Positions 3,051-5,250 of a stretch of 40,526 nucleotides of DNA are shown here, one piece after another. The stretch is from Ruminococcus sp. Lineage in GTDB: Bacteria > Bacillota > Clostridia > Oscillospirales > Ruminococcaceae. The notes under the pieces were generated by a model, which saw nothing but the letters and a program-made list of their open reading frames with translations, had not been told where the DNA came from and did no database searches. The stretch's first letter is position 1, and every line of letters starts with the position of its first letter. The translations under genes were made by a program, and so were the position numbers. The DNA is taken from the NCBI GenBank assembly GCA_017634275.1, contig JAGBNQ010000047.1:1-40526 (forward strand), given 5' to 3'.

Positions 3051-3083
3051 AAACCCTTTCCGTCAGGAAAGGGTTTGACTTTT
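3051..3083 (+). terminator. Terminator after proS
   Basis: AAACCCTTTCC (3051-3061) pairs with GGAAAGGGTTT (3066-3076) around a 4-base loop. The following tract is only moderately T-rich. The 3' arm overlaps the -35 box of the next promoter. Confidence 0.8.
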
Positions 3084-3103
3084 CTGTTGGGGTATGCTAT
3101 AAT
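3075..3103 (+). promoter_or_regulatory. Promoter of the small toxin-like gene
   Basis: TTGACT (3075-3080), a 17-base spacer and TATAAT (3098-3103), with an extended TGC before the -10 box. This is near consensus and would start an RNA near 3110. Confidence 0.8.
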
Positions 3104-3140
3104 AATAGCGGTTCGAGTTCATTTATTGAAGATTTGGCGG

Positions 3141-3160
3141 TCTCCTTAGAGATAAGGAGG
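3141..3160 (+). promoter_or_regulatory. Hairpin sequestering the ribosome site of the toxin-like mRNA
   Basis: CTCCTTA (3142-3148) pairs perfectly with TAAGGAG (3153-3159) around a GAGA loop, which is a GNRA-type tetraloop. The paired 3' arm is the ribosome binding site of the ATG at 3170. Hiding the site in a 5' hairpin is typical of type I toxin mRNAs. Confidence 0.75.
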
Positions 3161-3169
3161 GTTGCACTG

Positions 3170-3277
3170 ATGTATCTTACACTTGAGGATTACATACTCT
3201 TGACTGAGTTGTTGTTGAAGGTGATAGAAATACAGATAATGTGCTACTGGTTCTTCCGTAACAAGAAGAAAAAGTAA
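3170..3277 (+). CDS. Candidate type I toxin peptide, 35 residues
   Basis: The ATG follows AAGGAGGG by 8 bases and opens a 35-residue frame. The product has a mostly hydrophobic or amphipathic helix (YILLTELLLK through IMCYWFF) and a very basic tail, RNKKKK. This is the build of Fst, TxpA and BsrG-type membrane peptides, but I see no direct match to any of them. Supporting context: it has its own near-consensus promoter, a hairpin over the ribosome site, and an opposing RNA promoter at 3447-3475 reading into its 3' end. It could instead be a leader peptide for the acyl-CoA ligase, but the convergent antisense promoter argues against that. Confidence 0.65.
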   Translation: MYLTLEDYILLTELLLKVIEIQIMCYWFFRNKKKK

Positions 3278-3316
3278 GCTGAAAGTGTAGCTCATTAAAA
3301 GTGAGACAACATGGGT

Positions 3317-3359
3317 AAAGCAAACACCGCCAAAACTCTAAGTGTTGGCGGTGTGCTTT
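3317..3359. terminator. Bidirectional terminator shared by toxin mRNA and antisense RNA
   Basis: AAAGC plus ACACCGCCAA (3317-3333) pair with TTGGCGGTGT plus GCTTT (3345-3359) in a long stem. The tail is short on both strands. A stem shared by two convergent RNAs is the arrangement of the Fst/par type I systems. Confidence 0.65.
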
Positions 3360-3440
3360 AAACACATAAAAAACCAATAACGAGGAGTGCCGCTTTAGAT
3401 CCTGCGGGGCTGCAACCCTGCAGGGCTCGGGCTATCCTCT
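3317..3440 (-). ncRNA. Candidate antisense antitoxin RNA
   Basis: A minus-strand RNA of about 120 bases should start at the A opposite 3440 and end in the shared stem. Near its 5' end is a strong hairpin (CCTGC/GCAGG with an inner GGG/CCC stem, 3401-3424). Two parts repeat the 5' leader of the toxin mRNA. TTGGCGGT occurs at 3134-3141 and 3345-3352. ATAAGGAGGGTTGCA (3152-3166) matches ATAACGAGGAGTGCC (3377-3391) at 11 of 15 positions. The antisense RNA could therefore also pair with the ribosome-site region. No protein is encoded. Function is inferred from architecture. Confidence 0.65.
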
Positions 3441-3446
3441 GAAATT

Positions 3447-3475
3447 ATTATAGCACATTACAAGTAATATGTCAA
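3447..3475 (-). promoter_or_regulatory. Perfect consensus promoter of the antisense RNA
   Basis: Read on the minus strand, TTGACA (3475-3470), exactly 17 bases, then TATAAT (3452-3447). It faces the toxin-like gene and has no coding region behind it. Confidence 0.85.
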
Positions 3476-3527
3476 GTCGTCCGCTTGGGGCGGCTTTTTA
3501 TTTTTATAATTTATTGCTTTAAAGCCC

Positions 3528-3615: not shown

Positions 3616-5250
3616 ATGCCGATAACCGAGCTTTTGGAAAGAAATGCGAGGGAGTGTCCCGAGGAGATAGCTCTCGTTGAGGTAAACCCCGAGATAAAGG
3701 AAAAAAGAAGAGTGACATGGAAGGAATATGAGCTTATCGAGCCCGATCAGGAAAGCCACTACAGAAGAGAAATAAGCTGGAGCGTATTTAATGAAAAGGC
3801 TAACCGCTTTGCAAACCTGCTTATCTCGCGCGGCGTGCAAAAGGGCGATAAGGTGGGTATCCTTCTTATGAACTGCTTAGAGTGGCTGCCTGTATACTTC
3901 GGCGCGCTTAAAATGGGCGCACTTGCCGTTCCGCTCAACTTCCGCTATACCGCTGATGAGATAAAATACTGCCTTGATCTGGCAGAAGTCGATGTTCTTG
4001 TTTTCGGCCCCGAGTTTATCGGCAGGATCGAGGAGATATGCGAGGAGATATCCAAAAACCGCCTGCTTTTCTATGTGGGCGAGGGCTGCCCGAGCTTTGC
4101 GGAGCATTACGATACCCTTACCGCTAACTGTTCAAGCATAACTCCCGATATCAAGCTTACCGATGATGACTATGCAGCTATCTATTTCTCATCGGGCACA
4201 ACGGGTTTCCCAAAGGCGATACTCCATAAGCATCAGAGCCTTATGCATTCCGCTAAGGTGGAGCAGAACCACCACGGCCAGACTAAGGATGATGTTTTCC
4301 TCTGCATTCCGCCGCTTTATCATACGGGCGCTAAGATGCACTGGTTCGGGTCACTCTATTCCTGCTCAAAGGCGGTGCTTTTAAAGGGAGCAAAGCCCGA
4401 GTTTATAATTGATACTGTTTCTAAGGAAAAATGTACTATAGTATGGCTGCTCGTTCCGTGGGCGCAGGATATCCTTGATGCGATAGATAGAGGGGATATC
4501 GACCTTTCAAAATACGAGCTTTCTCAGTGGAGGCTCATGCATATAGGCGCTCAGCCCGTTCCGCCGTCGCTTATCGCCCGCTGGAAAACGGTTTTCCCGA
4601 ACCATAAGTATGATACAAACTACGGCCTTTCTGAATCAATAGGCCCCGGCTGCGTACATCTGGGTGTCGAGAATATCCATAAGGTAGGCGCTATCGGCAA
4701 GGCAGGCTACGGCTGGGAGGTCAAGATAACCGATGAGAACTTCAATACCGTCAAAAGGGGCGAGGTAGGCGAGCTTTGCGTTAAAGGCCCCGGCGTTATG
4801 ACCTGCTACTACAGAGATGAAAAGGCCACAAATGAAACTCTTAAGGACGGCTGGCTCTTAACGGGCGATATGGCTCAGGAGGACGAGGACGGCTTTATCT
4901 ACCTTGTTGACAGAAAGAAGGACGTTATAATCTCGGGCGGCGAGAACCTCTACCCCGTTCAGATAGAGGACTTCCTGCGCGCTCACCCTGCGATAAAGGA
5001 CGTAGCTGTTATAGGCCTTCCCGATAAAAGGCTCGGCGAGATAGCCGCTGCTATAATCTCTGTCAAGGACGGAATGCAGTGCAGCGAGGAGGATATCAAT
5101 TCCTTCTGTGCTAAGCTGCCGAGATATAAAAGACCTCACAAGATAATCTTTGCAGACGTTCCCCGTAACCCCACGGGCAAGATAGAAAAGCCAAAGCTCA
5201 GAAAGATCTACTGCGGCGAGAGCTTGGTAGAGCAGCAGATAAAAAGCTGA
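3616..5250 (+). CDS. AMP-forming acyl-CoA synthetase
   Basis: This 544-residue class I adenylate-forming enzyme should activate a carboxylic acid to its acyl-adenylate and then transfer it to CoA. Visible motifs are SSGTTGFPK (about 192-200, phosphate loop), YGLSE (about 336), GWLLTGDMAQ (about 412), and NPTGKIEK near 518, which holds the catalytic lysine. Length is normal for the acetyl/acyl-CoA synthetase superfamily. An unusual charged N-terminal stretch (about 25-60) sits before the core. The substrate cannot be read from sequence; medium- or long-chain fatty acids and O-succinylbenzoate are both possible in this superfamily, but no menaquinone genes are nearby. AAAGGAAA precedes the start. 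Confidence 0.9.
   Translation: MPITELLERNARECPEEIALVEVNPEIKEKRRVTWKEYELIEPDQESHYRREISWSVFNEKANRFANLLISRGVQKGDKVGILLMNCLEWLPVYFGALKMGALAVPLNFRYTADEIKYCLDLAEVDVLVFGPEFIGRIEEICEEISKNRLLFYVGEGCPSFAEHYDTLTANCSSITPDIKLTDDDYAAIYFSSGTTGFPKAILHKHQSLMHSAKVEQNHHGQTKDDVFLCIPPLYHTGAKMHWFGSLYSCSKAVLLKGAKPEFIIDTVSKEKCTIVWLLVPWAQDILDAIDRGDIDLSKYELSQWRLMHIGAQPVPPSLIARWKTVFPNHKYDTNYGLSESIGPGCVHLGVENIHKVGAIGKAGYGWEVKITDENFNTVKRGEVGELCVKGPGVMTCYYRDEKATNETLKDGWLLTGDMAQEDEDGFIYLVDRKKDVIISGGENLYPVQIEDFLRAHPAIKDVAVIGLPDKRLGEIAAAIISVKDGMQCSEEDINSFCAKLPRYKRPHKIIFADVPRNPTGKIEKPKLRKIYCGESLVEQQIKS

What the first reader, a model, noticed from the sequence alone, without database searches (positions are those of the whole stretch)
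3075..3475. Candidate new type I toxin-antitoxin locus with convergent RNAs
Between proS and an acyl-CoA ligase lie a near-consensus promoter, a ribosome site locked in a GAGA-loop hairpin, a 35-residue hydrophobic/basic peptide gene, a shared stem terminator, and a perfect TTGACA-17-TATAAT promoter pointing back at it. Two blocks of the peptide mRNA leader (TTGGCGGT and ATAAGGAGGGTTGCA) recur in the antisense part, so the small RNA could pair with both the 3' end and the ribosome site. This is the logic of Fst/par and BsrG/SR4, but the peptide matches none that I know.
Basis: partly seen in the sequence, partly recalled or inferred. Interest (0 to 1): 0.85.

Follow-up and report, generated by a model that had tools for sequence, protein, structure and literature searches.

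The report
Repeated toxin–antitoxin locus in rumen Ruminococcus
Between two ordinary genes of a rumen Ruminococcus lies a tiny self-poison gene faced by a small RNA gene that very probably keeps it silent; related species carry up to eleven diverged copies, and in many more distant relatives the silencing RNA looks like a copy of the poison message's own front end.

Summary
The 35-codon gene at 3170-3277 is under purifying selection (dN/dS about 0.09) and belongs to a multicopy family in 7 of 7 genomes of its genus: 37 copies, three peptide types. Of 33 copies with enough downstream sequence, 32 have an opposing TTGACA/TATAAT-like promoter; the exception is a truncated gene. A small-RNA covariance model matches all 7 genomes. 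The leader hairpin hiding the ribosome site and the small RNA's outer stem both covary (0 of 5000 permutations). All 30 intact toxins with flank face the antitoxin promoter; of 6 damaged sites 4 keep it. Best reading: a type I toxin-antitoxin system with the RNA layout of Fst/par but another peptide. The window peptide matches no library family; one of 13 type B paralogues scanned passes Pfam Hol_Tox. Corrections: the second repeated block is only 11 of 15 identical, and the shared stem is a poor terminator for the mRNA, which may run on to 3496. New: in 15 of 26 family and 9 of 12 order loci the antitoxin's 5' end is a same-sense near-copy of the toxin leader. In the window's genus this is weak. 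No expression or toxicity data exist; function is inferred.

The parts
3075..3103 (+). promoter of the toxin mRNA (TTGACT-17-TATAAT)
   Evidence: 11/12
3110..3169 (+). toxin mRNA leader: 5' stem-loop, TTGGCGGT element (3134-3141), then hairpin hiding the ribosome site (anti-SD arm 3142-3148, loop GAGA, SD arm 3153-3159)
   Evidence: folds; covariation of the hairpin arms
3170..3277 (+). 35-residue peptide gene (type A toxin)
   Evidence: dN/dS
3317..3359 (.). hairpin shared by both transcripts; terminator of the small RNA, weak one for the mRNA
   Evidence: tails
3313..3440 (-). antitoxin small RNA (about 125 nt): outer stem, inner hairpin, linker, terminator hairpin
   Evidence: covariance-model match 3313-3440, E 2.6e-20 (this copy is one of the 14 the model was built from); folds
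3381..3388 (-). second anti-Shine-Dalgarno segment, inside the small RNA
   Evidence: duplex with the leader SD arm -11.7 kcal/mol, 2 of 100 shuffles as good
3447..3475 (-). promoter of the small RNA (TTGACA-17-TATAAT)
   Evidence: 12/12; conserved in 32 of 33 copies
3474..3496 (+). plus-strand terminator-like site just behind the small-RNA promoter; possible true end of the toxin mRNA
   Evidence: same kind of site in 20 of 30 units against 0.7 expected from shuffles

Best explanation
A chromosomal type I toxin-antitoxin module. The plus-strand mRNA encodes a 35-residue hydrophobic, lysine-tailed peptide that probably acts on the cell's own membrane (inferred). Its leader folds so that the ribosome site is hidden (predicted; supported by covariation). 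The convergent small RNA overlaps the mRNA's 3' end through the shared hairpin, or through its whole length if the mRNA runs to 3496, and carries a second anti-Shine-Dalgarno segment that can pair with the leader's ribosome site. Together these keep translation off and probably recruit RNase III (inferred). If the small RNA is lost, toxin can be made (inferred).
For: Homologues in the genus. Purifying selection (peptides of the 30 assembled units): type A 11 of 11 usable pairs dN<dS (4 of 15 saturated pairs dropped), type B 89 of 89 (46 of 135 dropped), type C 5 of 5; identical pairs skipped. Opposing promoter in 32 of 33 copies found by peptide alone (37 copies, 4 cut by contig ends). Small-RNA model matches in 7 of 7 genomes, one of them (G002) not used to build it. 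Covariation: leader hairpin cognate -10.81 against permuted -8.98 kcal/mol, 0 of 5000; small-RNA outer stem -11.20 against -9.55, 0 of 5000 (29 of 30 units). Asymmetry: 30 of 30 intact toxins with flank have the antitoxin promoter; of 6 damaged sites 4 keep small RNA and promoter. Window SD arm/anti-SD duplex -11.7 kcal/mol. One type B paralogue passes Pfam Hol_Tox.
Against: No RNA-seq, toxicity or pairing data. Type A peptides are less hydrophobic (best 19-residue mean 1.49 and 1.64) than the type B and C ones measured (2.10-2.71). The SD/anti-SD pairing hardly prefers the cognate partner (403 of 5000 permutations; within type 115 of 5000) and reaches 5 of 100 shuffles or better in only 11 of 29 units. 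Copies are related paralogues, so permutations are not phylogeny-corrected. The small RNA's individual folding scores are modest. Two of 6 damaged sites have lost the antitoxin too.
Confidence: 0.78

Rival explanations
1. Leader-mimic variant: the antitoxin works mainly because its 5' part is a same-sense copy of the toxin leader. In a long mRNA the 3' UTR, which is the complement of the small RNA, could pair with the leader and free the ribosome site; the small RNA takes the leader's place on the 3' UTR, so the leader folds back into its closed form.
For: Outside the genus, leader and small RNA resemble each other in the same sense (36 loci: cognate alignment score 20.8 against 14.4 permuted, 0 of 5000; antisense control 13.2 against 13.1, 1863 of 5000; cognate best for 16 of 36); same-sense match at 2 of 100 shuffles or better in 15 of 26 family loci, 9 of 12 order Hol_Tox loci and 1 of 2 Ruminiclostridium loci. 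Within the genus 12.48 against 10.91, 1 of 5000. Plus-strand terminator beyond the small-RNA promoter in 20 of 30 genus units.
Against: In the genus only 1 of 30 units reaches 2 of 100 shuffles, the window 5 of 100, while 5 of 30 reach it in the antisense direction, the window 3 of 100; within peptide types 315 of 5000. Outside the genus the far terminator is found in only 5 of 32 loci (0.6 expected), so the long mRNA is not general. Same-sense similarity could be a leftover of inverted duplication.
Confidence: 0.25
2. A regulatory small peptide with an antisense RNA that is not a toxin, for example a membrane stress peptide.
For: The window copy and one in G006 keep the same place next to proS; no toxicity shown.
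Against: Many paralogues, tandem copies, presence and absence, and damaged toxin genes that keep the antitoxin fit toxin-antitoxin better.
Confidence: 0.12
3. Chance promoter-like and hairpin sequence between two genes.
For: Consensus matches do occur by chance (mean 1.9 promoter-like sites in shuffles of the region).
Against: Conserved frame, opposing promoter in 32 of 33 copies and covarying RNA folds.
Confidence: 0.01

Closest known systems
par of plasmid pAD1 (Fst / RNA I-RNA II)
   Same: Convergent promoters, shared hairpin at the 3' ends, SD-hiding stem-loop, repeated elements that let the small RNA pair at the translation start (features as given in PMC7472228, passages seen, and PMC4147584, passages seen).
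   Different: The peptide lacks the PXXXG motif and has no Pfam or NCBIfam match; small RNA about 125 nt rather than about 40, with a two-stem 5' domain; one repeat imperfect; multicopy chromosomal family.
Bacillus subtilis type I systems of the TxpA/BsrG/BsrE kind (Hol_Tox; that grouping is recalled)
   Same: Convergent RNAs overlapping at the 3' end; small hydrophobic peptide; one type B paralogue passes Pfam Hol_Tox, and that family rings in B. subtilis.
   Different: There the RNAs share 100-140 complementary bases and the antitoxin supports decay of the toxin mRNA (PMC6562991, passages seen); here the sure overlap is the 43-nt hairpin, and the small RNA carries a second anti-SD segment.
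Clostridioides difficile type I modules (CD2517.1-RCd8, CD2907.1-RCd9, CD0956.2-RCd10)
   Different: Sequences were not compared here; the word Ruminococcus does not occur in the main text of that review.

Membership tests
type I toxin-antitoxin | small hydrophobic peptide gene under selection | tested here: met
type I toxin-antitoxin | conserved opposing small-RNA gene overlapping the mRNA | tested here: met
   promoter in 32 of 33 copies, RNA model in 7 of 7 genomes; by sequence only, no transcript data
type I toxin-antitoxin | peptide toxic, small RNA neutralises it by pairing | not testable with these tools
   no wet data; genetic asymmetry only
Fst/par | convergent promoters and bidirectional terminator | tested here: inconclusive
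   promoters met; T-run behind the shared hairpin on the small-RNA side in 29 of 29 units, on the mRNA side in 13 of 29, not in the window
Fst/par | direct repeats giving complementarity at the translation start | tested here: inconclusive
   TTGGCGGT exact, SD block 11 of 15; pairing energy fair, weak cognate preference
Fst/par | SD-hiding stem-loop in the toxin leader | tested here: met
   covariation 0 of 5000
Fst/par | Fst peptide with PXXXG(C) motif | tested here: not met
   no proline in the 35 residues; no Pfam or NCBIfam hit
Hol_Tox (PF16935) | profile match above the curated cut-off | tested here: not met
   window peptide 0 hits, two other type A and two type C peptides none; of 13 type B peptides scanned one passes (24.2 against 23.3 bits, L047) and three match weakly (E 0.013-0.062); types A and B linked by profile comparison, probability 96.9

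The most novel reading that the evidence does not exclude
In many gut and rumen Clostridia the antitoxin RNA of Hol_Tox-like type I systems is a same-sense mimic of the toxin mRNA's own leader, made by inverted duplication, and silences the toxin by replacing the leader in its pairing with the message rather than by plain antisense pairing alone; the window locus is a diverged member.
Probability: 0.3. Interest if true: 0.78.

Novelty: new variant of a known kind. Interest (0 to 1): 0.62.

Why it matters
Type I systems are hard to find because peptide and RNA are both short. Here a family with up to eleven copies per genome in Ruminococcus can be followed across an order, linking an unnamed peptide to Hol_Tox and giving a testable RNA rule: the antitoxin's 5' end resembles the toxin leader. 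In the listings of paper searches (titles and abstract starts, some lists capped) I saw no paper describing such a system in Ruminococcus or a leader-like antitoxin; six papers were opened and only passages were seen. The library holds open-licence papers only, so this is weak evidence of novelty.

Tried and rejected
Rfam: no match at gathering score in the window or in 19 related loci; weak matches up to E 10 near the locus looked like chance. A type B peptide had no convincing relative in phages (2 records, E 0.4) or plasmids (none); the type B profile had none in viral contigs. Type A was not searched in those collections. An order Hol_Tox peptide matched 29 phage and 511 plasmid records at E up to 10. 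Two Bacilli plasmid Hol_Tox loci taken as outside comparison have a downstream opposing promoter-like site of 9 and 11 of 12 and a weak same-sense leader likeness (7 and 5 of 200 mononucleotide shuffles; antisense 26 and 19 of 200). RNAalifold on the 30-row alignment found only 13 pairs because MAFFT misaligns the arms, so arm-swapping permutations were used instead. My simple terminator scan misses bulged stems, so its counts for the shared hairpin say little; T-runs were counted instead (29 of 30 units, one without a recognised arm). I first took the palindrome in three G001 leaders for an insertion; the 3 places in the genus genomes are all such leaders, so it is a leader variant, and I do not count that copy as damaged. 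Searches were scripts that crashed; replace them. The first 29 units were picked with a promoter pattern and one was added by hand, which biases their promoter count; the unbiased count is. In one search the family set is one locus from each of 26 of the 40 non-genus genomes with hits; of 15 order Hol_Tox hits 12 were scored, two were left out as cut by contig ends (L124, L128), and one is the same place as family locus L109. Some rows are probably not toxins (L115, L117, L126, by long frame or missing promoter), but were kept in the counts.

Full report
What is there. In the gap between proS and an acyl-CoA ligase gene the sequence shows, in order, a forward promoter (3075-3103), a leader whose ribosome site is inside a hairpin with a GAGA loop (3142-3159), a 35-codon gene (3170-3277), a strong hairpin (3317-3359) and a perfect reverse promoter (3475-3447). 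The stretches 3110-3362 (+) and 3315-3440 (-) fold better than dinucleotide shuffles (z -3.63 and -4.43).

Relatives in the genus. A peptide search found close relatives in the same genus, and a profile of a second, shorter peptide type found copies in 7 of 7 genus genomes at E up to 0.1. I count 37 copies, damaged and cut ones included, of three types: 7 A (35 residues, the window), 25 B (mostly 31-32) and 5 C (36); the most in one genome is 11 (G005). Four records of these relatives are named Ruminococcus assemblies, one titled sheep rumen; that the RUG names mean rumen is recalled. Neighbouring copies occur in G003, G004 and G005. Types A and B are related by profile comparison (probability 96.9).

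Is the peptide made? dN/dS from ratios of means is 0.089 (type A, 6 sequences), 0.151 (type B, last 29 codons) and 0.157 (type C); every usable pair has dN below dS (11 of 11, 89 of 89, 5 of 5), after dropping saturated pairs (4 of 15, 46 of 135, 0 of 5) and skipping identical ones. Only peptides of the 30 assembled units were used.

Is the small RNA real? Among the 37 peptide copies, 33 have at least 200 bases downstream; 32 of these have an opposing promoter (all at least 11 of 12, spacer 17); the exception, G001:C285 (9 of 12), has a truncated peptide. A covariance model built from 14 small RNAs gives 36 matches at E up to 1e-5 in all 7 genomes (150 candidates scored per genome); the 14 match by construction. 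The predicted fold, an outer stem plus an inner hairpin, appears in 28 of 30 by my reading, with modest individual scores. Swapping arms between copies weakens the outer stem (cognate -11.20, permuted -9.55, 0 of 5000; within type 28 of 5000) and the leader hairpin (-10.81, -8.98, 0 of 5000; within type 0 of 5000) (29 of 30 units, one with an altered leader left out). These permutations do not correct for descent.

Do the two RNAs pair? The small RNA has a second anti-SD segment. Its duplex with the leader's SD arm averages -10.0 kcal/mol against -6.9 for shuffled small-RNA arms, but only 11 of 29 units reach 5 of 100 shuffles; the window does (2 of 100). Cognate preference is weak (403 of 5000; within type 115 of 5000), so cross-talk between copies is likely (inference). 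Leader anti-SD arm with the small RNA's 5' arm: 5 of 5000, within type 294 of 5000. Two control combinations: 852 and 4486 of 5000.

Toxin-antitoxin asymmetry. All 30 intact toxins with flank have the antitoxin promoter; one of them has the altered leader. Six damaged sites turned up. G002:C10 second copy (early stop) and G004:C26 middle copy (shortened end) keep it; so do G005 near 3429.3 kb (only the toxin's end left) and G003:C28 (toxin gone), each with a small-RNA match and a promoter of 11 of 12. G001:C285 and the remnant G000:C72 (9 of 12) do not. Keeping the antitoxin more often than the toxin is what one expects if losing the antitoxin alone is harmful; the numbers are small.

Where the mRNA ends. 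Behind the shared hairpin, at least 5 T in 8 bases are found on the small-RNA side in 29 of 29 units and on the mRNA side in 13 of 29; the window has 6 and 4. In 20 of 30 units a plus-strand terminator lies over or just behind the small-RNA promoter, against 0.7 expected; in the window it is 3474-3496. The toxin mRNA may therefore run through the whole small-RNA gene. Outside the genus such a site is found in only 5 of 32 loci, 0.6 expected.

Wider family. A combined profile hits 44 of 297 family genomes, 27 of 126 genera, at E up to 0.01, and 11 of 245 order genomes at E up to 0.001. Of 13 type B peptides scanned, one passes the Pfam Hol_Tox cut-off (24.2 against 23.3 bits). Five of these match a phage protein family of unknown function weakly (phrog_25294, best E 5.6e-5). 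Hol_Tox itself is found in 10 of 245 order genomes, 9 over the cut-off, and in 2 of 14 control genomes, B. subtilis and L. lactis. One place, G157:C54, is hit by both profiles. Opposing promoters of at least 10 of 12 occur in 20 of 26 family loci, 10 of 12 order Hol_Tox loci and 2 of 2 Ruminiclostridium loci.

Leader mimicry. In these relatives the small RNA's 5' end resembles the toxin leader in the same sense: 15 of 26 family loci, 9 of 12 order loci and 1 of 2 Ruminiclostridium loci at 2 of 100 shuffles or better, against 1 of 26, 0 of 12 and 0 of 2 in the antisense direction. Over 36 loci the cognate score is 20.8 against 14.4 permuted (0 of 5000), antisense control 1863 of 5000; the cognate small RNA is the best match for 16 of 36. 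In the window's genus the likeness has shrunk to the anti-SD segment (1 of 5000 overall, 315 of 5000 within type), and single units are not significant in the same sense (1 of 30; antisense 5 of 30). Two Bacilli plasmid loci show a weak likeness. This is the most novel part and the least certain for the window itself.

Place in the genome. The window copy and the G006:C23 copy share the site between proS and the ligase. It is absent in the 109 (G002) and 163 (G003) bases seen before a contig end, and in about 700 bases in G004 and G005; no proS match was found in G001. The type B profile found no relative in viral contigs.

Compared with what is known. The layout matches par/Fst as described in PMC7472228 (passages) and PMC4147584 (passages), but the peptide fails the Fst motif. 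By paralogues the peptide lies near Hol_Tox; the B. subtilis antitoxins share 100-140 complementary bases with their toxin mRNAs (PMC6562991, passages). I file it as a type I toxin-antitoxin candidate, a new variant, not as a member of Fst. That Hol_Tox includes TxpA and BsrE is recalled, supported only by the B. subtilis control. Passages of PMC6563280, PMC11264685 and PMC8040213 were also seen; none of them describes this family.

Noticed in passing
L076 108-132 and 1598-1623; L057: A near-perfect palindrome GTATCAAATGC..GCATTTGATAC occurs at three places in G001 and none in the six other genus genomes, each time inside the leader of one of these toxin genes.
   Followed up: partly
L175 (G003:C28 71400-72400): An antitoxin with its promoter but without a toxin gene: an orphan that may silence other copies in trans.
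   Followed up: partly
L087, L088 around 5001-5102: A Ruminiclostridium assembly (name Lapin) carries related loci with a MYLTLSDF peptide and a shorter small RNA.
   Followed up: partly
L092: In another genus of the family a related toxin locus also seems, by eye, to follow the proS gene.
   Followed up: no
small-RNA promoters of many copies, e.g. L070: The -35 box of the small-RNA promoter is part of a CCCTTG..CAAGGG stem followed by a T-run, so promoter and opposite-strand terminator share bases.
   Followed up: partly
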